Virus record (IMG/VR): IMGVR_UViG_3300037586_001091
Coordinates: 1-25,519 of that record
Direction: 5' to 3' (one strand)
Origin: a virus
Length of the DNA stretch: 25,519 nucleotides
Below the pieces are notes generated by a model that did no database searches, was not told the DNA's origin, and saw only the letters and a list, made by a program, of their open reading frames with translations. Each line of letters opens with the position of its first letter. Position 1 is the first letter of the stretch. Positions 5,745-23,614 of the stretch are shown piece by piece. The translations under genes were made by a program, and so were the position numbers.

Positions 5745-7368
5745 TGTTGAACAGAAGCTTAAGAAGGACTTCCCTTTATTCGCAGACATCATATTTAAAG
5801 AGACTCTCCAGTTAGGAGGGATAACTGACCTACAAAGAGATTTCTGTGAGACACTACAAAAGAGCAAGGCTGATAGATTATTTTTATCCTGTTTTAGGGG
5901 GTTTGGTAAATCATATCTACTTGCTCTTTTTGCTGTATGGACTTTATATAACGATCCTGATGAGAAAATTATTGTAGTTAGTGCTTCCTCACCAAGAAGT
6001 AAAGACTTTGTAAGATTCTGTAAGGATGTTATATTAAAAACTCCTTTATTAGAGGATATGATTAGTACAAACAGGAGAGGACAGGATTTAAGAACTAGTA
6101 TTTATAGTTTTGATTGCGTTGGTTCTAAGCCCTCTCAATTTGCCTCTCTAAAGGCTGTAGGCATTACTGGACAGGTTACTGGTAGTAGAGCTACTATGGT
6201 GATCTATGACGATGTAGAGATCTCTACGAACTCTCAGACTGAGTCAGCTAGATTTAAATTAGCGGAAGCAATGAAGGAGAGTAATGCCTTGCTTCTACCA
6301 AAGGGGAGGATTATGATTATTGGTACTCCCCAATCTAGATTCAGTATCTACAATAGTATGGATGGTTTTAAAACATTTAAATATCCTATCTATTACCCAG
6401 ACCCCCTTAGTTATAAGAACTTAGCACCCTATTTAGCTAAAAAGATTAAGAAGGATAAAAACCTTTTAAACACAATTACAGAAACAGAGAGATTTACAAA
6501 AGATGATATTAATAGTAGACACGAAGCATACGGAAAATCACAATTCGCACTCCAGTACCAGTTGGATACTAAACTCCTTGATGAGTTGCTATTTCCTCTT
6601 CAATCCAGAAATGTTAGGATTGTACCTATTGGCTTAGAGAAAGCTTATACAAAATATAAATTTGGGGGGATATTTGAGGAGAAAGGATACACATTAGGTA
6701 TAGGTAAAGCATCAACTGAAAATATGTATCCCTATGACCAGATTATTTGTAGTATTGATACAGCAGGTAAAGGTATCTGTGAGAACTCTAGTACTATATT
6801 AAAAACTTTAGGTGGTAATGTATTCATAGCAGATAGCATGAACCATAAGGACGGATTTACAGATGAAACCTTTGATGAAATACTTACGATGTGTAAGAAA
6901 CATTATGTAAGCCTTATTGTTGTAGAGAGCAACTATAGTAACGGTTTATGGGCTAACTTATTAATAAAGCACTTAAAAGAAAAAAAGCTGGAGATAGGAG
7001 TAGAAGAGATATTTAGTAAAGGAAAGAAAGCAAAGAGAATAGTAGCTAGTGTAGAACCATTCCTAACAGCAGGTAAATTATACGCAGACAAAGACTGGTT
7101 CGTTAAAGAGATGAGTAACCCACATCAAAATTTATTTCAACAGTTAGAGAGTATAGACCCAGAATCCTTAACTTCAAACCAAGACGATAGAGCAGATTCA
7201 TTAGCATTAGGACTAGCTCATCTACAATCTAATTTAGGGGTTAACGAAGACAGAGCAGACGAAAGATATAGAACAAGACTACTAGAGATGGAACTAGAGT
7301 CAGTTATACACAGTAAAGACTTCTTCAGTCAAAAGATAACAAGAGGTAATTTTGGAGGTTGGAACTAA
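5728..7368 (+). CDS. Terminase large subunit (T7 gp19-like)
   Basis: The ATP-driven DNA packaging motor and genome-cutting nuclease, 546 residues (T7 gp19 is 586). The N-terminal ATPase has a Walker A-type loop CFRGFGKS (residues 55-62, K61 and S62) and a Walker B strand MVIYDD (157-162) with E164 after it. The C-terminal RNase H-like nuclease shows the usual acidic residues: D344 in CSIDTAGKG, E400 in IVVESNYSNG, and D487 with D490 in DDRADSLALGLAHL. The start at 5728 overlaps the end of the 27-residue peptide gene. The stop overlaps the ATG of the next HNH gene (TAATG), suggesting coupled translation. Its position between the tail tube and internal virion genes differs from T7, where gene 19 follows the fibre and lysis genes. 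No small-terminase gene is recognisable nearby. Confidence 0.95.
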   Translation: MTRLTNVEQKLKKDFPLFADIIFKETLQLGGITDLQRDFCETLQKSKADRLFLSCFRGFGKSYLLALFAVWTLYNDPDEKIIVVSASSPRSKDFVRFCKDVILKTPLLEDMISTNRRGQDLRTSIYSFDCVGSKPSQFASLKAVGITGQVTGSRATMVIYDDVEISTNSQTESARFKLAEAMKESNALLLPKGRIMIIGTPQSRFSIYNSMDGFKTFKYPIYYPDPLSYKNLAPYLAKKIKKDKNLLNTITETERFTKDDINSRHEAYGKSQFALQYQLDTKLLDELLFPLQSRNVRIVPIGLEKAYTKYKFGGIFEEKGYTLGIGKASTENMYPYDQIICSIDTAGKGICENSSTILKTLGGNVFIADSMNHKDGFTDETFDEILTMCKKHYVSLIVVESNYSNGLWANLLIKHLKEKKLEIGVEEIFSKGKKAKRIVASVEPFLTAGKLYADKDWFVKEMSNPHQNLFQQLESIDPESLTSNQDDRADSLALGLAHLQSNLGVNEDRADERYRTRLLEMELESVIHSKDFFSQKITRGNFGGWN

Positions 7369-7874
7369 TGAGTAGATATAAAGATTTTTTGGGCCTAGAC
7401 TTAGAGAAGAAACAAATGAAAAGATGTAATAAATGTAAACATTACCTAAGTAAGAGTCAATTCAATAAAAATCATAAAGGAAAACAGGGACTCTATTCGT
7501 GGTGTATAGATTGTAATAAAAAATATGGGAAGGAAAATAAAGAGAAGAATAGAAGGAATAAAAGAAATACTACCCAGAATAGAAGTAATACTCTATATAG
7601 GAAATATGGAATAACTGATAAACAATATAAAGACATGGAAAGGGAACAAAATAATAAATGTGCTATCTGTGAGAAACCTGAATCAAGGCTTGATGATAAT
7701 GGATATCCTACAAGACTCTGTGTAGATCATGATCATATTACAGGACATGTTAGAGGTCTTCTCTGTTCTAAATGTAATCTAGGGATTGGGTACTTAATGT
7801 CTGATGAAGGTACAGATATTTTATTTAACGCTGTAATCTACATTGAAAATCATAACCTAGATCATGACTTCTAA
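7368..7874 (+). CDS. HNH endonuclease, recombination endonuclease VII type
   Basis: A 168-residue endonuclease VII-type HNH nuclease, probably a free-standing mobile endonuclease. I chose ATG 7368, which overlaps the terminase stop (TAATG) and has GGAGG at 7354-7358; a TTG nine bases upstream is a weaker option. With this start, a zinc ribbon is formed by C20, C23, C46 and C49. A basic linker (about 50-75) follows. The endonuclease VII core has C98-x2-C101, D120-H121-D122-H123, T125-G126, R129-G130-L-L-C133 and C136-N137, the standard VDHDHxTGxxRGLLCxxCN signature. The zinc ribbon opens with MKRCNKCK at an internal ATG (7416), nearly the same as MKQCNKCK of the HNH gene at 430. In T4 this fold resolves branched DNA; here cutting a specific phage site or resolving packaging intermediates are both possible. 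Confidence 0.9.
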   Translation: MSRYKDFLGLDLEKKQMKRCNKCKHYLSKSQFNKNHKGKQGLYSWCIDCNKKYGKENKEKNRRNKRNTTQNRSNTLYRKYGITDKQYKDMEREQNNKCAICEKPESRLDDNGYPTRLCVDHDHITGHVRGLLCSKCNLGIGYLMSDEGTDILFNAVIYIENHNLDHDF

Positions 7875-8886: not shown

Positions 8887-9837
8887 ATGTGTATACCAAA
8901 TCAAGTAAATCCAGGGACAGCAACTCAAGCAACTTATGATGCAGCAGGGGGAATTCCTCTAACTTTAGGATCTAATTGGGGAACTAACGCACTAGGAATT
9001 CCCGATCCCTCAATTCCTCATATGACCCCAGCTATTCCAACAACAACTACCTTTCAACCATTAGGTCCTGTACAAGCCCCAACCAAGGCTGCTGGTGGTG
9101 GTGCTGAATTCGTGAAAAGCCCAGAAATTTCTTCTAATTATAGTAAAATGTTTGCTATACTAGGGGCAGGAATACAGTTATGGGATTTCAACACAAAGAC
9201 ACATGCAGCCAACCAAGCTGTTGATAGTTTAGAAAACGCTCAAGAGGCAGATAATATTAAATTTACTAATCGTCAAGCCTTAAATGATTTAGAGAGTAGG
9301 TCTACAATAGACGATATAACTAAACAAGCAGCGTCTACTAGAGCCGAATATAAAGTAGCTAAAGAAACCATAACAGGAGGCTCAACAGCCCGTCTTTTAT
9401 TACAGGATTTCCGTAAGAATGAGTTAGATTTGAAGGAGAAATCTATTGATATAGATACCCAGAAAAGAATAGCTATGAGGGATCAATTACAGAGTCAATA
9501 TGCCCAAAGAGAGGCTAAGGCAAAAGAAATAATGGATAGTGTCCCTACAAGAATGGAATTAGCAATAGGAATAGCAACAACAGCTATAGCAGCATATTCT
9601 ACATTTGGAGTAGGAATGTTTGCTACAGGGATGGGACAAGCCTTAATTTCACGAAGACAGAAGTATAATGCTGCTGAAGCAGTAACTCAGGCTAGTCAAA
9701 CCGCTCAACTTGATTATGATGCTAAACAAAGAGCCTTTGCAGAAAAAGTAGAGGAGCTTAGACGAAAAGAGGAAAAAAGAAAGGCTAAGGCATTATTTAA
9801 TAAGGATGATGATACCGATACCTATCAGTATATATAA
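8887..9837 (+). CDS. Internal virion protein B (T7 gp14-like)
   Basis: A 316-residue protein in the gp14 position. In T7, gp14 is ejected first and forms a pore in the outer membrane. The N-terminal 70 residues are rich in Pro, Thr and Gly and look unstructured. They are followed by a helical region (about 95-215) with many charged residues, and a hydrophobic segment at about 223-255 (MELAIGIATTAIAAYSTFGVG at its start) that could insert in a membrane. A Lys/Arg/Glu-rich helix and an acidic tail (DDDTDTYQYI) close the protein. It is longer than T7 gp14 (196 residues), mostly because of the N-terminal part. An AGGAT site at 8873-8877 precedes the ATG. The assignment rests on position, the hydrophobic-helical layout and its neighbours more than on motif identity. 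Confidence 0.72.
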   Translation: MCIPNQVNPGTATQATYDAAGGIPLTLGSNWGTNALGIPDPSIPHMTPAIPTTTTFQPLGPVQAPTKAAGGGAEFVKSPEISSNYSKMFAILGAGIQLWDFNTKTHAANQAVDSLENAQEADNIKFTNRQALNDLESRSTIDDITKQAASTRAEYKVAKETITGGSTARLLLQDFRKNELDLKEKSIDIDTQKRIAMRDQLQSQYAQREAKAKEIMDSVPTRMELAIGIATTAIAAYSTFGVGMFATGMGQALISRRQKYNAAEAVTQASQTAQLDYDAKQRAFAEKVEELRRKEEKRKAKALFNKDDDTDTYQYI

Positions 9838-9846
9838 GGAATTAAC

Positions 9847-12800
9847 ATGGGATACCGAGACAGATTAAAGTTTAACATACCCAATTTAACCTATGCTGAA
9901 CCTAGCTATGGAACACCTGTGGGTTACAACAACCAGAGCCCTGCTCAGAGGCTCTCTAAGCCTCTCCAGAACCTTTTAGGGGTAGCAGGTAAGGTAGCTC
10001 AGCAGGACATAGCTAAGACGCAGCAGGAGGAAGTACAGGCGTTTAAGCTGGAAGGGATAGAATTAGACAAAGAGGCTAAATTAAAACAAATTAAGTTTGA
10101 TAAGGAGTTTAAAGAGAGCCAGTTAAAATGGAAGTTTGAGTATGATCAAGACAAGATTTCATATGAGGAGATGAAGGAGCAGCAAATCAGAGAAGGGGGC
10201 TTACTTCGTAGGAAATATAATAAAAAGTCTTTTGCTGAAGCACAAAGAGACGGTGATATTCCCCCTACAGGAAACCCTTATTTAGCATGGGGTTGGTACG
10301 AGGCTGAAGGACAAAGAGCCAAGCTTTCCTTTCAAAATGAGGTTAGAGCAGCATTTGCCCAAGCAACATTAAATCCTGATAAATTTTTTGATCCTGTTGA
10401 AGGACTAGCTGCCTTTGAAGAAATGATGGCATTGAATAGAGCTAAGTCTTATATACAATTACCCCAGAATTATGTAGCTCAGGAGGAGTTTTTAAAGGGA
10501 TCAGAGTCTTTTTATGCTAGTATGAAGGCTCAATATAATAACCTTTTTGCTGAACATTCATTAGGAGTTCGTCAAAGTGGTTTTAATTCAGCAGGAATGG
10601 CAGCCGCTGAGGAGCATTTTAATGACATAGATTCAATTGGGGAAAGCTCCCCAATAGACTTGTGGGAAATGCTTGATCCAAAGGACCCAGAGGATCTAAA
10701 AATACTAGAATCCCTTAAAAATGCTACTCCAGACACAGAAGAAAAGGTACTAGAGAAGACCCGATCTTTCCTTATTAATCAGGCTAGAGAAGATTTAATT
10801 GAGGATTATCAAGCTATTTATGATGGTATTTACCTTGATGGCGAATCATTAGTAGGTGCTAATCCTACAGACTTCTTTCTTACTGTGTTAGGTAATAGTA
10901 ATTTAAGTCCATTAGACCAAGAAAGAGTAATTCAGAATATTAAAGCAGGAACGGACAAGTTAAGTAATACGGATAAGGGTAAAGCCTTCTTAAATACTAT
11001 TCATGAGGTTAGTAAGGTCCAGGCAACAAATGAATGGTATGATAATAATAGACAAGCAATAAATAATCTATATCGGGGTATAAATCAAATGCCCTATGCC
11101 GTGACAAATGAAACTGAATTAGATGATTTAAATAAATCCTTAAGAAAACAATTAGATGATTTAGTTGATCGTAATCTAAGTCCTGATATTTATTATGGAT
11201 TTGATAGACAATTAGGAGCGGCTCACCTAGCTGCCTCAAGAAAGATATACCCAGAACAAACAACTGCTTCCATAAAGGCACAACGAGAACAGAATCAGGT
11301 TGCTACTGTTCTATCCAATGTAACTGCTGGAAATATAACGGGTTCAGTAAATAAATTAGTAGAGATAAAAACGGCTGGGGCAACATCAACTAGTATTATA
11401 GAAATAGCCCAATCAGAACTATCTAAACATAGAAAAAGATATAATCAAGAATATAAAGCGGCTGTAGATGCTGGTGGAGATACTCCGATTCCTCCTGTCC
11501 CAGAAGAGTTGGGTATGATGTATGAGACATTAGAACAATTTAGATCTAAGACTAACGGTAATTGGACTTTAGGTAATTATTCCCCACAGGAATTACCTAA
11601 GTTGAGTAAATCTGAATCAGACTTTTTATTAAGTGAATTTAATGCTGGTAGATTAAACTTACATATGAACGAAAATAGTGGAGCGTATGAAATTTTTAAT
11701 AAATCTTGTACTGCTAATAGATCTGGTGATCCCGAGAGTTTAAGAAATATAGTGTCTGCCAATCTTGCTGTATGGGAAAAGAAAAAAGTATCAGAGGAGC
11801 AATATGAATTTACTGGGAAAGTCTCTATCCTTGGAGATGAGAAAGCAATTAATGTTGATTTGGCTACATTTGCTCAAAAGGTAATAGAGGATGAGGATAT
11901 TGCTATTAACGAATTCGTACAACACGAAATGTATCAAGCCTATCACTCTGAATACTTAAAAAATAAAAGCGGAGGAGAAAATGATTTAGCTGCGAAAGAG
12001 ATGGCTATGCAGCATGTTCAAAAGATGTATAAAGCAGTAACAATTAAATATGATCCATGGGGTACAACAAAACAGAAGTTTTATTTTGTTGATAACACCG
12101 AGGATATACAATCTGATTCTTATGATACTGTTACCACTATGGGAACTAGTGAGGGAGAGAGGGGACAAATTCTTAGGAATTTGATGGATGAGGTTAAAAG
12201 TATGCAACCTATAAATTATATTGAGGGTGCGGTAGCTCTAAGAGAATCAATAGTGGATGAACAAAGAGAAGAGAGATTAGATGGTCTATGGCAAGATAAC
12301 GCTCAGGCTTATTATGAGGGGAAGGTGGCTGACGCAGATGATGAGAATAAGAGTTTTAGTAAGTTCTTAGATAGTAAGGAATGGCAAGAATTTTTACTTA
12401 AGCAGACTGCTCACCTCCAGGGGGCTGGTGGCAACCCATTTGGTACGCAGCATATTCCCTTACTTTTAAGCCAGAAAAGTATAAGAGAACAAATAGAAAA
12501 GAATGGTGGTTTAATTAACGGTCCTAATATTAATATTTTAGTAAATGCATTAGCTAATGATTTAAGTCCTGAAAATCCTTCTCAATGGAAAAATAAGTTT
12601 AAAGACAAGTTAGCAAAGAGATTTATTCGCTTTGAGGTTTATACCCCAAAGGGACAAGCAAAAATTGTGGAAGGTAAGAAGCAAGAGCTTCTAGATCAAT
12701 ATAACGCAGATGTAAATGATCCTAAATCCCAGGAATCTAGAGATATATATGAGGGTTTAAAAGATGTTATTAAATGGAATTCAGTTAATGATAACTTTGA

Positions 12801-12963
12801 TACAGAAGGTTATATAACCATTAACGATGTATGGGATAATGGAACACCTTATTTTACAATGACAGATGAAAATGGAGAGGTGTTAAGATACACTAATACA
12901 CTTAATGGTATAGTTTATTTTGATCGTAGTACCTTAAAACCCATTCTAAGGAATAGAAAGTAA
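9847..12963 (+). CDS. Internal core/ejection protein (T7 gp15-like)
   Basis: A 1038-residue mostly helical protein in the place of T7 gp15 (747 residues), which with gp16 builds the periplasmic and inner-membrane channel for DNA entry. The first 40 residues are basic and Pro/Tyr-rich. A strongly charged coiled-coil region follows (about 60-120), then NPYLAWGWYEAEGQRAKLSF, a block I associate with this family, and further helical domains to the end. No membrane segments or catalytic motifs are visible. AAGGA at 9836-9840 gives the start. The stop is one base from the next ATG, so it is translated with the giant gp16-like protein, which is its expected partner. It is longer than T7 gp15 by about 290 residues, and the extra part cannot be placed without alignment. 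Confidence 0.8.
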   Translation: MGYRDRLKFNIPNLTYAEPSYGTPVGYNNQSPAQRLSKPLQNLLGVAGKVAQQDIAKTQQEEVQAFKLEGIELDKEAKLKQIKFDKEFKESQLKWKFEYDQDKISYEEMKEQQIREGGLLRRKYNKKSFAEAQRDGDIPPTGNPYLAWGWYEAEGQRAKLSFQNEVRAAFAQATLNPDKFFDPVEGLAAFEEMMALNRAKSYIQLPQNYVAQEEFLKGSESFYASMKAQYNNLFAEHSLGVRQSGFNSAGMAAAEEHFNDIDSIGESSPIDLWEMLDPKDPEDLKILESLKNATPDTEEKVLEKTRSFLINQAREDLIEDYQAIYDGIYLDGESLVGANPTDFFLTVLGNSNLSPLDQERVIQNIKAGTDKLSNTDKGKAFLNTIHEVSKVQATNEWYDNNRQAINNLYRGINQMPYAVTNETELDDLNKSLRKQLDDLVDRNLSPDIYYGFDRQLGAAHLAASRKIYPEQTTASIKAQREQNQVATVLSNVTAGNITGSVNKLVEIKTAGATSTSIIEIAQSELSKHRKRYNQEYKAAVDAGGDTPIPPVPEELGMMYETLEQFRSKTNGNWTLGNYSPQELPKLSKSESDFLLSEFNAGRLNLHMNENSGAYEIFNKSCTANRSGDPESLRNIVSANLAVWEKKKVSEEQYEFTGKVSILGDEKAINVDLATFAQKVIEDEDIAINEFVQHEMYQAYHSEYLKNKSGGENDLAAKEMAMQHVQKMYKAVTIKYDPWGTTKQKFYFVDNTEDIQSDSYDTVTTMGTSEGERGQILRNLMDEVKSMQPINYIEGAVALRESIVDEQREERLDGLWQDNAQAYYEGKVADADDENKSFSKFLDSKEWQEFLLKQTAHLQGAGGNPFGTQHIPLLLSQKSIREQIEKNGGLINGPNINILVNALANDLSPENPSQWKNKFKDKLAKRFIRFEVYTPKGQAKIVEGKKQELLDQYNADVNDPKSQESRDIYEGLKDVIKWNSVNDNFDTEGYITINDVWDNGTPYFTMTDENGEVLRYTNTLNGIVYFDRSTLKPILRNRK

Positions 12964-12964
12964 T

Positions 12965-15900
12965 ATGGCTCAAGATCCACCAAGCAGAGAAGACCTAGAC
13001 GAGGATTTCCTTAAGAAGAGAAAGGAAATGGCAAGAATTTTTAATATTACCTCTCCCGATACTCCCGATACTCCTACTCCCCCGTCATCAAAAGCTTCTG
13101 AAATAATAGTAGACACTCCAGAAACTCCAACCTCCGCTAAAGGAATTCTTTCTTTTAGAGAAATTCAACAGCTTCCTAAACTTAAAGTCTCTGATTATAA
13201 AGATGATTTTGAGGATGATGATTATTTTGGTTTTAAGAAAGTAGAGGAGTATAAAAAGACATTAGTTAATCCTCCTTCTCTTTGGTCGTGGGATGGTTTA
13301 TATAGTTATTCATTAGCTGCTGATGGTATAGATCCTAAACCTTGGAAAGCTTGGGGTAGACAAGTATTTGGTGAGAATATGTTACACCAAACCGCAAGTA
13401 GATTCTTTTTTGGTGAGGATCAAAAAGGTTATACAGACCCAGATTTTAGCTGGGAGAAGGAACCTTATAAATCTGAATATAAAAAACTTATAGAAGGATT
13501 ACCAGAGGGGTTTGCAGCATCTCTTAAAGAAGTAGGTTCTATTGATCAAGCTAGATATCTTCGTGCGAGGGCTGAAAGTGTAATTAATGACCAGATGGAA
13601 ATGGCAGAGGAATGGGGACAATGGGGTTCTCTAGGTCTGCAAATAGGAGGAGGTTTTTTGGATCCTGCTAATTATCTAATGTTTCCTTTTGCTGCTGCTT
13701 CAATTGGACATAAGGGAGCTATGGCATGGTCTACCGCACGAAGATTAGCAACTGCTGGTACGGTTGGAGCTTTAGAAGGATATGGTTATGGTAAACTATA
13801 TGAGGCTGCTGATGTTACAAAGACTGATCATCCTGATTGGATGGGTCCAGCATTAGGGGCAACTTTTGCTACTGCTTTTGTAGGAGTTCCTGGTATATTT
13901 AAACAACAGAAGTTTAAAAAATCTGTTATTGACGCTCAAAGGGCAGGAGCTTTAATTGATGATCTAGGAAATCCTATTAAGGTTGAAAGTTGGGATGAGT
14001 GGTATACTCTTAGAAAACAATATGAGACTGAACTAAATGAAATACTTAATAGGCATCAACCTAAATCTGAAGAAGGAGCTTTAGGAGGTAAAGTTGATTG
14101 GAGAACAAGAGGAAGAAAAGCGGATGTAACTTTAGATAATTTCCCAGACACTCCAGAAGGTAGACAATCAGCAAAAGAATATTGGGAGAAAGCATCAGAT
14201 ATTGAAAGGATAGATAGAGCTTGGGGTATTAATAGAGAAGAGATTGCTCGTAAATTTGAAGTGGATGAAGCTAGAACAGTAGAATCTACTGCTGAAGTTG
14301 TTGTTGATAAAACCAAAGGAACTCAGCAGGTTGAGTTTGTAAACTCTGAGACAGGAGAGCGTCAAACAATCCCTATAGAGCAAGTGGGAAAAGGTCCTAA
14401 GCCCAAAGATATTACTCCAGAGTCTGTATTAAGAAGTAAATTATGGAATGAAATAGATACTCTTGGAGAAGAAGAGTTTAATAGAAGATTTAGGGAAGCT
14501 GGTTTAGTGTTACAACAAGAGGGTAGGACTAGTATAGAGAGTCCTTGGAGTACTAGAGGTGCTGCTAAAGATCTTCTAGATTGGGAAATAGCTAGTAAAG
14601 ACTTACAGGAGCGTTTTGGTGTAGAAAGACCTGAAGATATACAAATTTATAAAGATGCTGCTGCTATGGCTATTGAATACAGAGGCAGGGGTGAAATTTT
14701 AAACTTAAATGTATTAGAGCATTTTACTGCTCTTAGATATAGGAAAGATAAAGCTAGAGATATTCTTGAGTTTTTATATAGAGAGGGTTATGCTACTGGA
14801 GAAAAACTTGCCCCAGGAATAAAGGTTGTTTGGCAGGATAGAACACCAGAACAAATGTCAAAACAGTCTTTGGAAGAGGTTCTGAAATATTCTGGGGAAG
14901 ATTATTCTCCTACATTTGAGTTTAAAGAGTTAATTCCAGGATTAAAAATGGAAGACGACTATACTTATCATTACACCGTTTCTCCTTTTGGTAGTGAACT
15001 CCTTCCTTGGTTCCATACAGGAACTAGACAAGCTGCTATGGACAGAGCAGTAAAGACAGCAAGGCACGGGGGTAGAAACAAACCACCTTTAGGTCGTGTA
15101 TTAATGCTTCCCAAACCTGATCTTTCTGATAAAACTAAATGGTTATATTTACCAGAGGATTTAGGTAGTTGGGAGCCAGACAGATTGATTGATCATTTAG
15201 TACAAATGCCAGAAATTATAGCATTAAAAGATGAAGGTCTGATAGTTGGATTAGAGAGAATTAAAAGAAGGTTTATTACTGGGCAAAAACATGTTCAGAA
15301 TAAGTTGTATGGGAAAACTGGTGTAACTAAAGATCCAGAACCTGCAAAATACACCAATACACCAGAGGCACAGAGAGAAATTGCGGAGGTATTGAACTCC
15401 TATGGTTTTGAGGGAGGTTATTACATTAATGCTGTTGAGGACCCAGGATCTACCTCTCTTGCTTGGTTCCAACCTCAAGATGAATTTTTAAAGCATTTCC
15501 AAACTAAGCTATACGCTGGAGTACCAATTGATACAGAAGAGATTTTGGCATGGATAAGATCAATGGCAACCGCTGGTAAGAAAATTACCCAAAAGGCTTG
15601 GACTGCTATCCTTAAGCTATTCAGAACTAAGCAAGAAAGGTCCTTAGACAAGTATAAAAAGGTTGAGGGGGATTTAACTAATTCTGATCAAAAGAGGCTG
15701 GATTTTTCTGAAGAGATACCCCCAAATGAAGTAAAACTACGATCTCGGCTAACGGACCTTTCGAAGCATTTAACAAGTCCACTTGGGGAAGAAAAGGAGA
15801 TGAGATTAGATCCTAATTTTTATAAAGATTGGTATGCTCTGGGTTTTGATAGAATACATACTCACTTGTCAAGACATAGAATCGGGAATGACCCAGATGT

Positions 15901-18900
15901 AAATGTTAATCCTAGTGAGCTACTTGCTCAATTAAATGATCTTTCCCCAGAAGCCCTAGATGCTCAAATGCTTGAGAGGTATAGAGAGATTTTTGTTGAA
16001 TGGAAAGTTGCTTATTACGAATATATTAACGAACTTCGGAAGAAGGATGATCCTGAGCCGTTGCCATCGTTCTTAGGACTACCTAGAGAAGTGTCCAGAA
16101 GAGTTCAGAATCAGGAGGCTGAAAAGTTTCTTAAAAATCTAGGAGATATCAAAGAAATAGATGCGGTAAGACAAGAATGGACCCGTGAGGCTGCCAGTCT
16201 TGATAAAAAGCAACTGTTTTTAGAGTTTATGGATCCAACGGCAGCGGTCCGAGGTGCTGAGAAGCATATTTTGCAAATGTATCACCGACAGCTACAGAGG
16301 CAGAAGATACAGAGAGATGAGCGTGGTGACTTGGACCAAAGATCTGATTATGAACTTCAAGATCATGTCGAGAAGCAGATGCGGAGACAGTATCCGCAAG
16401 AAGCTAAAATCGTGGAATTAGGGATCCTTCTAGGTCCTCGGATAAAATTTGATGGATTAGCTAGTCTGAATCATGAATATGCCACCTTTGTTAAAGATTA
16501 TCTTGCTAGTAAGACTCCTTTAGGTGAGTGGGAAACGAAAAAAGGGCAATTGGAAGCTCTTCAAAATGAGTCTCGCGAAGCTATTAAAACTCTTGAGCAA
16601 AACATTGAGGATGAGGCTATTTTTGCTGAATCTTTATTGGAAGCACACGGTCTACTTAATAGAGAAGCCTTAACTGCTCGTATTGCTGATATTAAACAAG
16701 CTATCAAGGATAAAAAGAATGTTGGTCAAAGAGGAATGGTTACTCTACCTCCAGGGGCAGGAGGAAATAAACCAGGGAAGAAAGAACTAGAGGTTTTAAG
16801 GTCTGCTCAAAAGTTAGCTAAGGACCTTCTATTTCCTTTGGGACAAGAAATAGTTAGCCAAGGACCTACAAGAGTTGGTGGAGGTACACCTAAAACTCTA
16901 GAAGATGTAGAAAGACGCTTACGAACTCTAGCACAAATGGGTATGCCAGAAAAAGAGGCGGCTAAAGCTAAAGAAAGATTAATGAGGGATTTAAATTTAG
17001 GTGCGAAAGTTGAGGAAGGTGTACAGGACTTTGATAGTTATACAACCGACCTTAAATACCTAGAAGAGGTAGATAGTGTATTTACTGCTCCTGAATATCC
17101 ACTTCAACAGCAGGATGTCGGACCTTGGAAGGGGTTAAAAAACAATGAGATAGATGAGGTTAGAGACGCTATTAACATTCTTTCTAATTATTTTAAAGAA
17201 GAGTTATTACCTGAGTTAGCTAGAATCCAAGAAGTTAGGGTAGACTATGAAAAGCAGAATCCTAATATTAGAGGTAAGTTTACAGGAAGACATCTTAATA
17301 AAGAAGAAAGAAGAACTCTTAAGCTTTTTAATGAAACCGATTTTGATAATTTACCACTTATTGAATATCCCAGGATATTAAATAGATTACTTAGGATCAC
17401 TAAAACTACCCTGGGAAGAAATAAAGCTGAAGTAATGATTTTAGCTAATTTAAATCTTAAGCATATTAAAAAGGGAGATCCTACTTCTGATTGGAATAGA
17501 TTAACTCAAGACCCAGTATTCCGTCAAGAAGTTTTGGATTCTTTTAAAACAGAAAGTCCTTCAGAGTTAAGTAAGGAAAGAATTAAATTCTTATCTACTC
17601 TTCATAACATTAAAACTCTTCAGGATATTGTAACTACTAATGTTGATCCGTTGCTTTCTTTTATTCCTGAAGATGTTGTAAAACATATTCGTCAACTTGG
17701 AGTCGCTAAAAGTTTACATGGACCTGCTAAGGAGGTATATGAATTTCGCAAGAGATCCTTAATTGCTAAACTGCGTAAAGAACCACTACTTAGAGAGAAA
17801 TGGGGAAAAACAGTAGGTCCTTTAAATAAGTGGTTTGATGTAGATGGTTTAGATTTAGGTAACATAGAAGAGTTTCGTGCTGGTTTTACACCCAGAGATT
17901 TAGAAAATCTTTTAAATGATATTAAGACTGGGGCTAGTTTGATTGGTGCTGCTATTAAGAATAAATTACTTGTAGGTCTTCCTCCAGCATCAGTAGCAGA
18001 AGATCTTAAGCCTATAAATACAATAGTTAGAGCCATAAAAAATGGTACTGTTAAACTTTATAATATTTATCATCCTAATCAATCACTCTTAGTTGACTCG
18101 GTACAGGCTGGAAATTTATCCGAAATGAGTGTTGTGGCAGCCCGTAATGCTGGTATTGATCCTAATGATTTAGTAGTTAGAAGGGTAACTCCAGAAATGT
18201 TTCTAGGTGATATAGATCCAGATACAGGATTACCTAAGCGTATTAATGATATTATTAGTGATGAGAACTGGAATAAAGGTTTTAAAAAGATTCTGGGGGG
18301 AGTACACGGGGCATTAGATCTTATATCTCTAGATCATTCTATCAGAGACAGAGCTTTATATAAATTTTACACAGAGGAATTAGAAAGAATAAATTGGAAT
18401 CTAGCTAATGCAAGAATGGAATTAGTAGTAGGTCCTGCAACAGCGCGTGATGCTCAAAAACTTGCAACTGATCAAACTAAATTAACAGAGTTAATTAAGA
18501 GAGTAGAACAGCGGCTGGAAACACCTAGTGAACTAGGACCGATAGAAACAGAAGGGGGTCTAGGTATAGTAGATTTAAATAATAAAATTAATCAATCTAA
18601 AGAGACTCTTATTGTTCTTAATGAACTTATTAGAACTACTCGTTTAAGAATAGATAATTTGGTAGATATAGATACAGCATCTCTAACAGAAGAGAACATA
18701 GGGTTCTTATCTGACAATCATGGTAATGTCATGTCACTTCTTGATGCTTATACCAGATTAGTGAGTGATAGGCATTCGCTAGAGAGAGTTCTCATCCCAA
18801 GGTATGAACACACTAGAGCATTAATTAAGGATCGGAGCAGAAATGTTTTTGAGGGAATTGTTGATCCTGATAAGGTAATTGAAGCACAAATACCTGATTT

Positions 18901-21900
18901 CACAGAGAGTAAAGATTTTTATGCCTATGTATCTAAGATGGACAAGAGGTTAAAAGATCATATTGATAATCAAAAAATAAATGTATTAAGCCCAGACTAT
19001 TTTAAAAAGCAGGGTATTGTAAAATTATTTAAAGCTAAACGAGAAGAGCTTAATATTATTGTTAATGGTTATAATGCCCCTAGTTTGTATCCAGAATTCA
19101 GTAGACTTCCAGCACGAAGAGATGTTTTTTCTATCTTGGAGAAATTTTTTAATATTGGTGGAGTTAAACTAACTCTTAACAATAAAGCTATTGAAGCGTA
19201 TAAGGATGTTAGTTATGAAAAGCTGTACCAACGAATACAAGCGGTGGCAGAATTTGGAGATGACCCCGCCTTGTGGACTGAGGATGCCCTCTCGCATCTG
19301 GGCTACGGGGATCTGTATAATCCTCAGTTAGCAAAATTGGCAGAACCAATTACTGTAGATCCATTGCGTCAACCACTAGATGTAATAAGATATAGGGAAT
19401 TGGATCTATTAGACTTTGCTAAAGTAACAGTAGAACAGTTAAATAAAGTTTATAGTACTGAAGAAACTTTATTTAAGGATTTAGATTATTTAGGGGATTT
19501 GGCAGAGTATAAATATCTCAAAAATAATAAGCTTAGGGAAAAACTTTTAACTGATACAGGAATTGCTTCTCCTGTGTTAAAATCCCATATTAATAAAGCT
19601 GCTAAATATCTTGCTGAAGAAGTTATGCGACTAAAAGAGATAAGAGAGAGTATAGATGCCCCAGAAGCGATGGGAACTAAGGCTAAGAAACGGGCAGAAT
19701 TTGCAGAGAAAGCTTGGTTTTTAAGTAATTATGGTACTTCTCCAGCACAACTTTTGGAGCCTCTTAATGTGTTTAGGGGAAAAGTACCAAGTATAGATAT
19801 ACCTCATCAAATAGGTATAACAGAAGATTTTCCATATTCTCTTCAAACAAATTATGATTTAGCCGCATTAACTGTTTGGCTAAGAGATCCTGCTTCGCCT
19901 AATGCTACTTGGTTGGATGCTACAGAATCTGAGGCATTTACTTTCTTTAGAAATAAGATAACTTTAGATGTTGAAAGTCATTTACGAGTAGCTTTTAATA
20001 ATTTAGAACAACAAATGGATGCTGAATTAGCACCCGTAGCTACATTTGAAGAATTAGCAAGGGGTGATGTTGAATGGGGTGTTAGAGCTAAAGACGATCC
20101 TGACAAAACTACTTATTTTTATGCTGGTCTGCCTCCTTTTGATATAGTTGACCCAATAAAGGCATTTTGGGGAATCATTACTGAGAAAGCCAAGAAGTTT
20201 TCTCTCTTCTTCAATGGAAAGGATTTCTTAAAACCAGATCTTCCCCCATTAGTTAGAAAAGACCCAGCCAGTAATTTCATAGGCACCTGGGGAAAGGATG
20301 AAAATAACCTTGTTATCTTTAGTGATAAGTTACCTAATTTCATAAAGAGACTCCGTTCTAGGAGGGGAAGATCTCAGGTTAATGAGTTGGGGCTAATTAG
20401 GAAGTTCGGTCAATGGGTGTATGGCTCTGAGAGGCTCCGTGTGGACGCAGGAGATGCTTCCGAAGGGGTTAACATGGCAGCAGCACAGACTCTATCAAAG
20501 TCCACTCTACTTGAGCAGGGAGCGGTTAAAGCCCGTACAAGAATTCTAGGTGAGTATACAGATAGGGTTATGTCAGCTAGGGATAGAGTAATTAAAGATA
20601 CCCTGATGCCCAGAAAGGAAGTGGATGATATTGATGTTATTGTTCAGGATACAGTATATGTAGTTTATCAAAGACTTCAGAAAAGTTTAGGTGCTAGTTT
20701 AGGACTTAATGATGGTGCTGTAATTGACGGAGTTATGCAAAACTATCCAGACCTTACTAGAGAAGCAGCAAAGAGTATCGTAAACTATGCTAAAGAATTG
20801 AATGATATTAAAACTGATTTCTTGAAAAGACATATTGGTGTAGATATAGAATCCTTAAATTTGGTTACTAAGGTAGATGTTACTGATCTAAGAAGATTTG
20901 CTGGGGTCTTTGAAGAATTAAGAGATGTTAATATTAATAACGAAGAACTACTTAGATTCCTAAAGACTGATGTTCTCAATGAAGTTAGGAGCGGGATTGA
21001 ATATGATGACTTCTCTAACTTTGCTCAAAAATTAATTGATGATGAGAATGTTATAATTCAAGAGGGTACTCTAAAAGAAATAGTTATTCCAGATATACTA
21101 AATCTTCTTGATCAATATGCTGATTTTTCTACTTATGAAAATATCCTTCAGATAATTGACACCTTTGGTTTAGATCAGGTACTAAAGAATCCCCAGAAGT
21201 TATTACTCTCTAAAGAGATAAGTGATGATTTTAATGTCAACATGCTTAAGCCTTATTCTGATGAGCCTTTTGTATTCTGGGATAGTTTAAGAGATCTAAA
21301 TCAAATTGCTGCGTATGGTCAAATAGAGAAGATGCTTGGTGATTCAGTTAAAGGAGCAGAGATTGGTGTATTAACTCCAAGACAAGAAGAGTTAATTAAA
21401 AACATAGTTGGATCACAGGGAGATTTTAGGGGTAGGATGCAGGAAGTTATTAATTCTTATCTTGGTCATATCATTTATAAGAACATCTCCAGAAACGCTA
21501 ATGATGGAACATCTATATTTGGTAATTTCACTAAGGATTCCTGGGGTAAATATCTCCAAAAGAATACCGTTGATAATCAAGTATTAACTGAAAGTCCTAC
21601 CTTTCCTATAGATTCAATAGAGGATACAGGAGATTTAGTAGTAAGCATAGATAAATTTATTAGAAACTATTTCTTTGAAAATGATGCTAGATTAAAACTA
21701 GAACTTGATTTTGATAAACCCCATAAAATTGAACTTCAAAGTAATGCTGCTGAAACCCAGAAACTATCTATGGATAGATTGAATACAGAGCATGGTAGAT
21801 TGAAGGGTAAAATTAGATCAGATGAACTTATTACTGATGATATCAGATTAAAAGACTTACCTGTTACTACTCCAAAAGATGAGTTAGCTGTCATGTTCGG

Positions 21901-23614
21901 TAAGCTTATTACTGCTAGAATTGAGAGTGACTTTATTAAAGAGTTTAATACTGTTCTTAAGTCTGAAGGATTATACCATAAAGAATTTACTAAGGGTGAG
22001 GATATCTTTGAATGGATTAAAGACAATAAAGATATTCTTATTAAACAAGGAGTAATTACAAACGGTAAAGAATTTGATTTAATGATTGGTATGCTTGAGA
22101 GGGATTTACTTGGTCAGAAACCAACTGATGCTCCTAGAGAAGTTGATGACTTTGTTCAAATGATGCAAAAAGGAGCAACAGCTACTAGTATCTTTGGATT
22201 TGGTATCCCAGCTATGCTAGAGTCTGCTCTTCCTATTGTTTCTAATTTACCTCACTTTATTAGGAATTTACCAGCAATGAAAGAGATTCTTCTTAATCCT
22301 AGAAGCGTAGGTAATGAAGGGCTTAAAGATTTCCTTAGAGGTGCTGGGGTTGGAACAGAAGCTAACTTGTTTAAGGGATCTGGGTCATCTAGAAAGAGTA
22401 TTATCTTTGATGATAAAAACCCCATGATTAAAAACCCTAATGCTTTACCTCCTCTTGGAAATAAAGATGTTCTTCAAAGAGGAATGGAAAAAGTTGAAGA
22501 GGGTTTAGCATTAGTTAACCCCTTCCAATATCCAGCAATAGTAAAAAGAAAATTAGGGAGTTTAGCCTCTGGTAGATCAACTGATAGGGATAAAAGCTTA
22601 AGAACTAAAACTTTTGATTCAATGATTGACCAACAAGCTGGTTTTATGAATTTCTTTACCAGAAAAGGTCAGGACATAGCAGCCAAAGCTTTTATCTCTA
22701 GAGTAATTGATAAAGTTAAGGTAGGGGATTTTGATAATTTTGTAGATCCTAATGTTGCTGCTCAAATTGGATGGAGTCCCGAAGATAGAGCTACAATTTA
22801 TAGAGAACTTAGAAAAGCATTGGATACTATCCCAGAAACAGAAATTAGAGGTGTATCAATGTATGATATTCCCTCTATGGTAAATGGTGACTCCAGTAAA
22901 GGCTGGACTGGGATGAGTGGTAGGACTAGGGATAAATTCCTGTCTGGTATCTATAACTATGTGGGTCAGCAAATCGTTAGACCTGATTTGGGTGATCTTC
23001 CTAGATTCATGGATAATAAATTCCTAAGCTTCTTAATGCAGTTTAGAGGGTTTGGAATGGCTGAATTTGGGAAAAGAATAGGTCCTACTGCTCAAAGGGT
23101 AGGTCAAGATCCTAAATCATGGGCTACAGCAGCTTTAGCCTCAATGCTTTTAATGAACGGAGTATACGCTGTTCTGACATATACATTAACTTTCCCAGAG
23201 GAAACCAAAAAGGATCTGGAGAGAATGGTTGGGACTAGAAGAAGTAAAGCAGATTTAACCTCTATTGTTACTGGTGAGGGATTAAAAACAAGAGTTGACA
23301 GAGCATTCTTAGGAGGATTAATTAACTCCTTCACAGGATTAACCAGTATTACTACTGATCCAATTCTAGATGCTTTGGATTTCCAGCTATATACTGAATG
23401 GTTCGATAGCTCTTGGAGAGGACCAGCAGCCAATATGGCAGAAAGTGTTGCTGCGTATAGATATGGTAAGAATTTAGGGAAATATCCATACGAGGTTTTA
23501 ACAGGAGATAAAGATATAGACTTTGAGGAAGCATCAAAATGGACAGCTAGACAAACTGGGATGTATAGAGTTTGGCAACTTTTCAGATTAATGAACCCAG
23601 ACACCTTCAAATAG
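12965..23614 (+). CDS. Giant ejection protein, gp16-like C-terminus, ADP-ribosyltransferase-like domain
   Basis: A 3549-residue protein in the place of T7 gp16 (1318 residues), which is ejected into the host and forms the inner-membrane part of the DNA channel. In order: an acidic Pro/Thr-rich start (1-60); a Gly/Ala-rich hydrophobic zone (about 220-313); an ADP-ribosyltransferase-like region (about 666-845) with Y668-H669-Y-T671, then WFHTGTRQAAMDRA (682-695) and YGFEGG...NAVEDPGSTS (813-831, E825); a long helical, partly coiled-coil centre; a hydrophobic stretch at about 3072-3105; and a C-terminal LPRFMDNKFLSFLMQF (3345-3360) with a membrane-like helix after it, which I recognise from podophage gp16-type proteins. 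A YAG(V/L)P motif occurs twice (850-854, 2386-2390). No transglycosylase motif like that at the T7 gp16 N-terminus is seen, nor RNA polymerase motifs. The stop codon lies in the next promoter-like element. The gp16-type role is fairly sure; the enzyme domain is inferred from motif order. Confidence 0.85.
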   Translation: MAQDPPSREDLDEDFLKKRKEMARIFNITSPDTPDTPTPPSSKASEIIVDTPETPTSAKGILSFREIQQLPKLKVSDYKDDFEDDDYFGFKKVEEYKKTLVNPPSLWSWDGLYSYSLAADGIDPKPWKAWGRQVFGENMLHQTASRFFFGEDQKGYTDPDFSWEKEPYKSEYKKLIEGLPEGFAASLKEVGSIDQARYLRARAESVINDQMEMAEEWGQWGSLGLQIGGGFLDPANYLMFPFAAASIGHKGAMAWSTARRLATAGTVGALEGYGYGKLYEAADVTKTDHPDWMGPALGATFATAFVGVPGIFKQQKFKKSVIDAQRAGALIDDLGNPIKVESWDEWYTLRKQYETELNEILNRHQPKSEEGALGGKVDWRTRGRKADVTLDNFPDTPEGRQSAKEYWEKASDIERIDRAWGINREEIARKFEVDEARTVESTAEVVVDKTKGTQQVEFVNSETGERQTIPIEQVGKGPKPKDITPESVLRSKLWNEIDTLGEEEFNRRFREAGLVLQQEGRTSIESPWSTRGAAKDLLDWEIASKDLQERFGVERPEDIQIYKDAAAMAIEYRGRGEILNLNVLEHFTALRYRKDKARDILEFLYREGYATGEKLAPGIKVVWQDRTPEQMSKQSLEEVLKYSGEDYSPTFEFKELIPGLKMEDDYTYHYTVSPFGSELLPWFHTGTRQAAMDRAVKTARHGGRNKPPLGRVLMLPKPDLSDKTKWLYLPEDLGSWEPDRLIDHLVQMPEIIALKDEGLIVGLERIKRRFITGQKHVQNKLYGKTGVTKDPEPAKYTNTPEAQREIAEVLNSYGFEGGYYINAVEDPGSTSLAWFQPQDEFLKHFQTKLYAGVPIDTEEILAWIRSMATAGKKITQKAWTAILKLFRTKQERSLDKYKKVEGDLTNSDQKRLDFSEEIPPNEVKLRSRLTDLSKHLTSPLGEEKEMRLDPNFYKDWYALGFDRIHTHLSRHRIGNDPDVNVNPSELLAQLNDLSPEALDAQMLERYREIFVEWKVAYYEYINELRKKDDPEPLPSFLGLPREVSRRVQNQEAEKFLKNLGDIKEIDAVRQEWTREAASLDKKQLFLEFMDPTAAVRGAEKHILQMYHRQLQRQKIQRDERGDLDQRSDYELQDHVEKQMRRQYPQEAKIVELGILLGPRIKFDGLASLNHEYATFVKDYLASKTPLGEWETKKGQLEALQNESREAIKTLEQNIEDEAIFAESLLEAHGLLNREALTARIADIKQAIKDKKNVGQRGMVTLPPGAGGNKPGKKELEVLRSAQKLAKDLLFPLGQEIVSQGPTRVGGGTPKTLEDVERRLRTLAQMGMPEKEAAKAKERLMRDLNLGAKVEEGVQDFDSYTTDLKYLEEVDSVFTAPEYPLQQQDVGPWKGLKNNEIDEVRDAINILSNYFKEELLPELARIQEVRVDYEKQNPNIRGKFTGRHLNKEERRTLKLFNETDFDNLPLIEYPRILNRLLRITKTTLGRNKAEVMILANLNLKHIKKGDPTSDWNRLTQDPVFRQEVLDSFKTESPSELSKERIKFLSTLHNIKTLQDIVTTNVDPLLSFIPEDVVKHIRQLGVAKSLHGPAKEVYEFRKRSLIAKLRKEPLLREKWGKTVGPLNKWFDVDGLDLGNIEEFRAGFTPRDLENLLNDIKTGASLIGAAIKNKLLVGLPPASVAEDLKPINTIVRAIKNGTVKLYNIYHPNQSLLVDSVQAGNLSEMSVVAARNAGIDPNDLVVRRVTPEMFLGDIDPDTGLPKRINDIISDENWNKGFKKILGGVHGALDLISLDHSIRDRALYKFYTEELERINWNLANARMELVVGPATARDAQKLATDQTKLTELIKRVEQRLETPSELGPIETEGGLGIVDLNNKINQSKETLIVLNELIRTTRLRIDNLVDIDTASLTEENIGFLSDNHGNVMSLLDAYTRLVSDRHSLERVLIPRYEHTRALIKDRSRNVFEGIVDPDKVIEAQIPDFTESKDFYAYVSKMDKRLKDHIDNQKINVLSPDYFKKQGIVKLFKAKREELNIIVNGYNAPSLYPEFSRLPARRDVFSILEKFFNIGGVKLTLNNKAIEAYKDVSYEKLYQRIQAVAEFGDDPALWTEDALSHLGYGDLYNPQLAKLAEPITVDPLRQPLDVIRYRELDLLDFAKVTVEQLNKVYSTEETLFKDLDYLGDLAEYKYLKNNKLREKLLTDTGIASPVLKSHINKAAKYLAEEVMRLKEIRESIDAPEAMGTKAKKRAEFAEKAWFLSNYGTSPAQLLEPLNVFRGKVPSIDIPHQIGITEDFPYSLQTNYDLAALTVWLRDPASPNATWLDATESEAFTFFRNKITLDVESHLRVAFNNLEQQMDAELAPVATFEELARGDVEWGVRAKDDPDKTTYFYAGLPPFDIVDPIKAFWGIITEKAKKFSLFFNGKDFLKPDLPPLVRKDPASNFIGTWGKDENNLVIFSDKLPNFIKRLRSRRGRSQVNELGLIRKFGQWVYGSERLRVDAGDASEGVNMAAAQTLSKSTLLEQGAVKARTRILGEYTDRVMSARDRVIKDTLMPRKEVDDIDVIVQDTVYVVYQRLQKSLGASLGLNDGAVIDGVMQNYPDLTREAAKSIVNYAKELNDIKTDFLKRHIGVDIESLNLVTKVDVTDLRRFAGVFEELRDVNINNEELLRFLKTDVLNEVRSGIEYDDFSNFAQKLIDDENVIIQEGTLKEIVIPDILNLLDQYADFSTYENILQIIDTFGLDQVLKNPQKLLLSKEISDDFNVNMLKPYSDEPFVFWDSLRDLNQIAAYGQIEKMLGDSVKGAEIGVLTPRQEELIKNIVGSQGDFRGRMQEVINSYLGHIIYKNISRNANDGTSIFGNFTKDSWGKYLQKNTVDNQVLTESPTFPIDSIEDTGDLVVSIDKFIRNYFFENDARLKLELDFDKPHKIELQSNAAETQKLSMDRLNTEHGRLKGKIRSDELITDDIRLKDLPVTTPKDELAVMFGKLITARIESDFIKEFNTVLKSEGLYHKEFTKGEDIFEWIKDNKDILIKQGVITNGKEFDLMIGMLERDLLGQKPTDAPREVDDFVQMMQKGATATSIFGFGIPAMLESALPIVSNLPHFIRNLPAMKEILLNPRSVGNEGLKDFLRGAGVGTEANLFKGSGSSRKSIIFDDKNPMIKNPNALPPLGNKDVLQRGMEKVEEGLALVNPFQYPAIVKRKLGSLASGRSTDRDKSLRTKTFDSMIDQQAGFMNFFTRKGQDIAAKAFISRVIDKVKVGDFDNFVDPNVAAQIGWSPEDRATIYRELRKALDTIPETEIRGVSMYDIPSMVNGDSSKGWTGMSGRTRDKFLSGIYNYVGQQIVRPDLGDLPRFMDNKFLSFLMQFRGFGMAEFGKRIGPTAQRVGQDPKSWATAALASMLLMNGVYAVLTYTLTFPEETKKDLERMVGTRRSKADLTSIVTGEGLKTRVDRAFLGGLINSFTGLTSITTDPILDALDFQLYTEWFDSSWRGPAANMAESVAAYRYGKNLGKYPYEVLTGDKDIDFEEASKWTARQTGMYRVWQLFRLMNPDTFK
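14957..15499 (+). other. ADP-ribosyltransferase-like domain within the giant protein
   Basis: Codons for about residues 665-845. The visible order is a strand with Y-H-Y-T (668-671) in place of the usual HGT; then an FHTG...QAAMDRA block (683-695); a segment LMLPKPDLSDKTKWLYLPED with W and D residues; and finally GFEGGYYINAVEDPGSTSLAWFQP (814-837). In phage 'polyvalent protein' ADP-ribosyltransferases the last block usually reads GYDGI.Y.NE.E...SY..F.P, and the pattern of H, Y and E is kept here (H669, Y820, E825). Known precedent: T4 packages and injects the ADP-ribosyltransferase Alt. Activity is not shown, and the fold call needs a structure prediction. Confidence 0.55.

What the first reader, a model, noticed from the sequence alone, without database searches (positions are those of the whole stretch)
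14957..15499. Injected giant protein carries an ADP-ribosyltransferase-like domain
Residues 666-845 show the ordered blocks Y-H-Y-T, FHTG...QAAMDRA, a proline/tryptophan-rich strand segment, and GFEGGYYINAVEDPGSTS. These resemble ADP-ribosyltransferase domains described in phage 'polyvalent' proteins (H, Y and E kept as H669, Y820 and E825). The host protein is a gp16-type ejection protein, so the enzyme would enter the cell with the first DNA. T4 Alt is a known case of an injected ADP-ribosyltransferase, but I know of no such domain within T7 gp16 itself. It could act on the host RNA polymerase, translation or a defence protein.
Basis: partly seen in the sequence, partly recalled or inferred. 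Interest (0 to 1): 0.75.

Follow-up and report, generated by a model that had tools for sequence, protein, structure and literature searches.

The report
ADP-ribosyltransferase domain inside phage ejection protein
A giant protein that this phage is expected to push into the bacterium along with its DNA carries a divergent but recognisable ADP-ribosyltransferase, an enzyme fold that phages and toxins use to modify proteins of the cell they enter; it is a new member of a known theme, not a new kind of system.

Summary
Confirmed. Residues about 662-852 of the 3549-aa ORF (window 12965-23614) form an ADP-ribosyltransferase (ART) domain. Direct Pfam, PHROG and PDB sequence searches miss it. A profile of 23 relatives that excludes the window finds it at E=5e-11, far above 1000 shuffles; all 20 relatives scanned hit Pfam ART-PolyVal. 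AlphaFold2 gives a fairly confident model (pLDDT 79, pTM 0.76) whose best structural neighbours are mostly ARTs. The carrier has T7 gp16 signatures (phrog_342) at both ends; the ART lies in the greatly expanded middle, the part that faces the host cytoplasm in T7.

H669 is the strand-1 His. The strand-2 Tyr is replaced by H684; Y820 is on strand 4; E825 is invariant but precedes strand 5, where the PARP-like acid position is S831. It belongs to an 'HxGT' subgroup of polyvalent ARTs.

Not unique: related domains sit in giant proteins at the same gene position in three other podovirus contigs, a similar ART is in the pre-ejectosome protein of cyanophage A-4L, and N4-like RPP1 is published. Two relatives sharing the gp16 framework lack it, so it looks like swappable cargo. 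Activity and target remain inference.

The parts
12965..23614 (+). 3549-aa T7 gp16-type internal virion (ejection) protein that carries the domain
   Evidence: single open frame; phrog_342 E=1.5e-19, matched at both ends; lies after MCP, tail tube A/B, TerL, endonuclease VII and a phrog_308 internal virion protein and before a tail fibre gene
13340..13879 (+). N-terminal gp16 framework block (aa 126-305, phrog_342 positions 225-396), hydrophobic, roughly T7 TMH I
   Evidence: hydrophobic stretch near aa 293; T7 TMH I is residues 243-410 (PMC8954989)
14948..15520 (+). ADP-ribosyltransferase domain, HxGT subgroup of ART-PolyVal (aa about 662-852)
   Evidence: HMM without window E=5.4e-11; hhalign 97%; AF2 pLDDT 79.4, pTM 0.76; structural neighbours mostly ARTs
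14966..14977 (+). strand 1 motif Y668-H669-Y670-T671 (family YHGT); H669 is the strand-1 His
   Evidence: H nearly invariant in A2; strand 14-19 of the model
15011..15046 (+). strand 2 and helix motif F683-H684-T685-G686-T687-RQAAMDR (family HFGTxxAANxR); H684 replaces the strand-2 Tyr
   Evidence: H684 invariant in 21 sequences; aligned with Y of GFYFT
15149..15172 (+).
   Evidence: alignment A2, nearly invariant D
15404..15469 (+). strands 4-5: G814-FEGGYYINAVEDPGSTSLAWF-835; Y820, N822, E825 and S831 invariant in the subgroup
   Evidence: strands 165-169 and 178-182 of the model
22643..23182 (+). C-terminal gp16 framework block (aa 3227-3406, phrog_342 positions 945-1101)
   Evidence: aa 2432-3543 align with relatives' giant proteins

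Best explanation
The domain is a mono-ADP-ribosyltransferase effector built into the ejection protein. The gp16-type protein is packed in the virion core and threaded out through the tail into the cell envelope; its expanded middle, including the ART at aa 662-852, ends up in the host cytoplasm at the DNA entry port. There the ART would bind NAD+ with H669 and neighbouring residues, with H684 lining the nicotinamide pocket and E825 as the likely but unproven acid, and transfer ADP-ribose to a host macromolecule, most likely a protein, before any phage gene is expressed. Shown here: domain identity, predicted fold, conservation of subgroup-invariant residues, gp16 framework on both sides, recurrence in other podovirus giant proteins, absence in two relatives. 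Inferred: packaging and ejection (by homology with T7 gp16), cytoplasmic topology, catalytic activity, target.
For: Window-free HMM and hhalign hits and an independent weaker one. All 20 HxGT relatives scanned hit PF18760, best 4.6e-20. AF2 model and fold matches: VIA Z 7.6 diphtheria-toxin homologue, 7.3 VPA0770, 7.0 ParT, 6.4 MbcT, 6.0 Tpt1; BFVD E=1.3e-5 to the pT24 ART and matches to named polyvalent ARTs. Residues H669, H684, Y820, N822, E825, S831 kept at only 17-30% overall identity. gp16 framework at both ends. T7 gp16 residues 411-1118, between the two membrane regions, are modelled in the cytoplasm (PMC8954989). HxGT ARTs at aa 787, 864 and 998 of giant ORFs (1752+, 3057, 2888 aa) placed downstream of tail tube A/B in three other contigs. 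Published precedent for injected ARTs: T4 Alt, and polyvalent proteins by prediction (PMC5512222).
Against: No activity data. Y670 replaces the small residue of YH[G/A/S]T. The canonical strand-5 acid position holds Ser in the whole subgroup, so the catalytic acid is uncertain. The C-terminal QIKS signature of the family is not clearly kept. Fold matches to solved ARTs are modest (Z under 8; best Foldseek PDB E 0.05). The two nearest gp16 frameworks lack the domain, so it is not needed for DNA ejection as such. Packaging of this protein has not been observed.
Confidence: 0.66

Rival explanations
1. The domain keeps the ART fold but is a pseudoenzyme: it serves as a binding or structural module in the giant ejection protein, for example in the core stack or the cytoplasmic hub.
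For: Y670 in the H-x-T motif, Ser at the PARP-like acid position, weak C-terminal signature, high divergence.
Against: The six subgroup-invariant residues are all kept at 17-30% overall identity, which a dead domain need not do; in PARPs the Gly of HG[ST] contacts nicotinamide by its main chain, so a larger side chain there may be tolerated (PMC7955679).
Confidence: 0.2
2. The domain is an active NAD+-consuming enzyme whose main job is not host-protein modification: it hydrolyses NAD+ or ADP-ribosylates DNA, RNA or a small molecule, for example to blunt NAD-based defence or to mark the incoming genome at the entry port.
For: Structural neighbours include RES-family toxins (MbcT, Xre-RES) and Tpt1/KptA; the strand-2 His recalls the H-H-h clade of ARTs (clade definition PMC7955679; that Tpt1/KptA belongs to it is own knowledge); the T7 gp16 middle binds DNA (PMC8954989).
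Against: The sequence family (ART-PolyVal) is grouped with protein-modifying ARTs (PMC5512222); RES, Tpt1 and diphtheria-toxin matches have similar Z, so they do not discriminate.
Confidence: 0.12
3. Chance resemblance of motif blocks; no ART domain.
For: Direct Pfam, PHROG and PDB sequence searches and GFYFT-type profiles find nothing.
Against: Window-free HxGT profile E=5.4e-11 against 1000 shuffles; hhalign 97%; fairly confident model with ART neighbours.
Confidence: 0.02

Closest known systems
ART-PolyVal (Pfam PF18760), HxGT-type members such as Tunturiibacter phage Tunturi_5, Tenacibaculum phage pT24, Synechococcus phage MinM2
   Same: Same motif order: HxT, HxGTxxAAxxR, LPDLGSW (in many), GxDGxxYxNxxEDxGSxSxxxF; 17-30% identity to the IMG/VR members; detected by a profile of them
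   Different: Window is more divergent (below Pfam detection), has YHYT, GFEG and no clear QIKS; its carrier is a T7 gp16-type protein
Roseovarius Plymouth podovirus 1 vRNAP (CBX87992.1), prototype polyvalent ART
   Same: ART of PF18760 inside a giant podoviral protein predicted to be injected with DNA
   Different: N4-like virion RNA polymerase carrier; strand-2 GLFFT type, clade described as H-Y-D
Anabaena phage A-4L ORF27 (probable match of PDB 9k3a chain B, cyanophage A4 pre-ejectosome)
   Same: Podovirus ejection protein in the same gene slot (after tail tube B and other internal proteins, before tail fibre) with an ART-like stretch at aa about 1422-1606; weak PF18760 match E=0.0035; the window model matches 9k3a_B with Z 6.9
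   Different: GTYFS-type strand 2, ART near the C-terminus, no detectable sequence relation to the window's gp16
HxGT-ART giant ORFs of IMG/VR contigs 3300031519_002912, 3300029787_000317, 3300035698_002620 (L041, L043, L061)
   Same: HxGT ART in a giant ORF downstream of tail tube A/B
   Different: No phrog_342 signature detected; L061 carries a second ART-like stretch
Bacteriophage T7 gp16
   Same: Framework blocks at both ends; position in the structural operon
   Different: T7 gp16 is 1318 aa with an N-terminal transglycosylase and no ART; the window protein has about 2900 aa between the blocks and no match to the transglycosylase part of phrog_342
T4 Alt
   Same: ART packaged in the head and injected (PMC5512222)
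   Different: R-S-E clade, standalone protein, not an ejection-channel protein

Membership tests
ART-PolyVal (PF18760) | Direct match to the Pfam model over its cut-off | tested here: not met
   no match even at E 10; relation to the family rests on the HxGT intermediates
ART-PolyVal (PF18760) | Homology to undisputed members | tested here: met
   window-free profile of members E=5.4e-11; all 20 members scanned hit PF18760; hhalign 97%
ART-PolyVal (PF18760) | H (strand 1) - Y (strand 2) - D (strand 5) active site as published for the clade | tested here: inconclusive
   H669 met; the strand-2 position is H684, not Tyr, as in the whole HxGT subgroup whose members Pfam accepts; E825 aligns with the Asp of some members (cr130, PalP_Y7, DflJY45) but the PARP-like position is S831
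ADP-ribosyltransferase superfamily | Split beta-sheet ART fold | tested here: met
   AF2 pLDDT 79.4, pTM 0.76 with strands in ART order; VIA Z 5-7.6 to many ARTs; BFVD E down to 2e-6. Z is under 8, so the fold match alone is moderate
ADP-ribosyltransferase superfamily | NAD+ binding and ADP-ribose transfer | not testable with these tools
   needs a protein assay
T7 gp16-type internal virion protein (phrog_342) | Sequence match to the family framework | tested here: met
   profile 225-396 and 945-1101, E 7.5e-15 and 1e-12, collinear
T7 gp16-type internal virion protein (phrog_342) | N-terminal lytic transglycosylase | tested here: inconclusive
   profile positions 1-224 not matched and no Pfam hit; the domain is also missing in P22-type homologues (PMC8954989)
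T7 gp16-type internal virion protein (phrog_342) | Presence in the virion and ejection into the cell | not testable with these tools
   inferred from homology and gene order
Polyvalent protein | Several unrelated enzymatic domains in one injected polypeptide | tested here: inconclusive
   only the ART was identified; the rest of the expanded middle matches nothing

The most novel reading that the evidence does not exclude
A distinct ART subgroup with a His-His-Glu/Ser pocket (H669, H684, E825 or S831) is displayed on the cytoplasmic hub of a T7-type DNA ejection machine and modifies a host factor at the DNA entry port itself, coupling genome entry to host take-over before any gene expression; different podoviruses swap effector cargo in this slot of gp16.
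Probability: 0.3. Interest if true: 0.72.

Novelty: new member of a known kind. Interest (0 to 1): 0.5.

Why it matters
If active, the domain would be an enzyme delivered by the ejection machine itself, so it could act on the host before the first phage gene is read. It extends the polyvalent-ART theme to a T7 gp16-framework protein, where the topology after ejection is known in outline, and makes a testable prediction: the expanded gp16 middle is a slot for effector cargo. It also points to an unannotated ART-like stretch in a protein of an isolated, structurally studied phage (cyanophage A-4L), a ready system for tests.

Tried and rejected
Direct Pfam, PHROG and PDB sequence searches of the region: nothing. 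tblastn of the domain and of both ends of the protein in phages: nothing. Close-relative scans of IMG/VR with the domain or parts of the protein: nothing. Profiles of mixed or GFYFT-type polyvalent ARTs do not see the domain. The hhalign run against A1 (E=4.6e-69) was discarded because A1 contains the window sequence. An assembly or recent-transfer artefact was considered: no break in base composition (ART GC 38.9%, GC3 26% against gene 36.7%, 24%) and one intact frame; but no second contig covering the domain was found, so the assembly cannot be checked independently. Foldseek against PDB alone was weak (best E 0.05), so the VIA second look was used; it can only re-rank Foldseek's candidates. 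Literature searches for an ART in a T7-like ejection protein found none in the held library; the A4 structure paper is not held.

Full report
What is there. The finding lies in one uninterrupted 3549-codon frame, window 12965-23614. The gene sits in a podovirus structural operon: major head protein, tail tube A, tail tube B, large terminase, endonuclease VII, an internal virion protein (phrog_308), two ORFs of 316 and 1038 aa without family matches, the giant ORF, then a tail fibre gene. The record is an IMG/VR virus contig of 25519 bases. Its nearest tail tube B relatives, apart from near-identical short contigs, are 42-46% identical.

The carrier protein. It matches phrog_342, the T7 gp16 family, at E=1.5e-19. 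A frame search shows two collinear blocks: aa 126-305 on profile positions 225-396, and aa 3227-3406 on 945-1101. In T7 gp16 (1318 aa) the two putative membrane regions are residues 243-410 and 1119-1290, and residues 411-1118 between them are modelled in the host cytoplasm (PMC8954989). So the window protein has the gp16 framework with about 2900 aa between the blocks, and the ART region lies in the part that is cytoplasmic in T7. This topology is inference by homology. The transglycosylase part of the family (profile 1-224) is not matched.

Check of the observation. The quoted blocks are present at the stated place. Pfam, PHROGs and PDB sequence searches of the region find nothing, nor does PF18760 searched in the record. 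tblastn and close-relative scans find nothing. To find more distant kin, a polyvalent-ART consensus recalled from memory was used as tblastn bait in phage records; it is a lead, and every step after it was tested. Three of the domains it returned (Tunturi_5, MinM2, pT24) share the window's motif order; Tunturi_5 and pT24 are PF18760 members at E=7e-17 and 1e-18. A scan of IMG/VR with an alignment of these three and the window gave 27 loci.

Statistics. A profile of 23 of these relatives, without the window, hits the 3549-aa protein at aa 668-838 with 29.2 bits, E=5.4e-11; the best of 1000 shuffles scores 7.3 bits. hhalign against a window-free alignment gives probability 97%, E about 2-4e-11, score 60; other tiles of the protein reach at most 10.9 and shuffles of the domain 12.5. 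All 20 relatives scanned hit PF18760. Because the IMG/VR scan patterns had included window residues, a stricter control used only the three bait-found domains: 10.1 bits, E=3.2e-5, above every shuffle (best 5.9) but by a modest margin. Profiles of the common GFYFT-type ARTs do not see the domain: it belongs with the HxGT subgroup.

Structure. AlphaFold2 on the window domain with 20 relatives gives pLDDT 79.4 and pTM 0.76, with strands at 14-19, 31-34, 58-64, 74-76, 165-169, 178-182 and 194-199 and helices between them (add 652 for protein numbering). In the VIA comparison the top rows are ARTs: a diphtheria-toxin homologue (Z 7.6), VPA0770 (7.3), ParT (7.0), MbcT (6.4), Tpt1 (6.0), diphtheria toxin and pertussis toxin S1 near 5.5. 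Z under 8 is moderate by the tool's own note, and some helical proteins intrude at Z 5-6. In predicted viral structures the best hits include pT24's HxGT ART and proteins named polyvalent ART, E 2e-6 to 2e-3. Sequence and structure agree.

Active site. The published polyvalent ART clade has His in strand 1, Tyr in strand 2 and Asp in strand 5 (PMC5512222). In the window H669 is the strand-1 His. The Tyr of GFYFT aligns with the His of HFGT/HTGT, so the strand-2 residue is H684, invariant in 21 sequences. E825 is invariant in the subgroup and aligns with an Asp in some other members (cr130, PalP_Y7, DflJY45), but lies in the strand 4-5 turn; where PARPs and some polyvalent ARTs (F116, USP25) have Glu, the subgroup has invariant Ser (S831). 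Which residue acts as the acid cannot be decided here. Y670 replaces a small residue; in PARPs this Gly contacts nicotinamide through its main chain (PMC7955679), so the change need not kill activity.

Is it cargo? Two contigs of 47 and 36 kb with 43-44% identical tail tube B have giant proteins of 3316 and 3389 aa. They align with the window protein over aa 2432-3543, one also around 1745-1874 and one over 158-334, but nothing significant aligns between 335 and 1744, and no ART is found in them. The two relatives also do not align with each other in the matching slot. So the ART sits in a variable section of a conserved framework. Conversely, three of the HxGT contigs carry tail tube B, and their ARTs lie at aa 787, 864 and 998 of giant ORFs (1752+, 3057 and 2888 aa) downstream of tail tube A/B. 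These lack a phrog_342 signature but occupy the same slot.

What is known. ARTs are the commonest predicted protein-modifying domains of polyvalent proteins, with the N4-like RPP1 virion RNA polymerase as prototype (PMC5512222; PF18760 match confirmed). In the VIA list the window model also matches cyanophage A4 pre-ejectosome chain 9k3a_B (Z 6.9). Anabaena phage A-4L ORF27, the probable source of that chain, has a YHGT...GTYFS...GVDAL stretch at aa about 1422-1606 with a weak PF18760 match; it is annotated only as 'tail protein'. So an ART in an ejected podovirus protein is not new in kind; what was not found in the held literature is one inside a T7 gp16-framework protein.

Mechanism. Most likely a mono-ADP-ribosyltransferase effector ejected as part of the DNA channel and exposed in the cytoplasm, modifying a host protein early. 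Shown: domain, predicted fold, conserved residues, framework, recurrence, variability. Inferred: ejection, topology, catalysis, target. The main rival is an inactive ART fold; a second is an NAD+-consuming enzyme with a non-protein target.

Verdict.

Noticed in passing
L066 (NC_024358.1) 20452-21006, minus strand: Anabaena phage A-4L ORF27, annotated 'tail protein' and probably the chain B of the solved pre-ejectosome 9k3a, carries an unannotated ART-like stretch (YHGT, GTYFS, GVDAL) at aa about 1422-1606.
   Followed up: partly
L070 (contig 3300035698_002620) 7405-16071: The 2888-aa giant protein carries an HxGT ART followed by a second, GIYFA-type ART-like stretch (FHGSS...GKGIYFA...GKDGIII...EEIIAFDPNQIKS) in tandem.
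   Followed up: no
window 9847-12963 and 8887-9837: The 1038-aa and 316-aa ORFs between the phrog_308 gene and the gp16-type gene match no Pfam or PHROG family; gene order suggests further internal virion proteins.
   Followed up: partly
window 12965-13340: No match to the transglycosylase part of the gp16 family; where, or whether, this phage carries a peptidoglycan hydrolase in the virion is not clear from the window.
   Followed up: no
window 7359-7874: Recombination endonuclease VII gene (Pfam E=5e-21) with a TTG-started frame overlapping the end of the terminase gene, within the structural operon.
   Followed up: no
window 15812-18184 (aa about 950-1740): Long stretch of the gp16-type protein between the ART and the first block shared with a relative has no recognisable domain; it may hold further cargo.
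   Followed up: no
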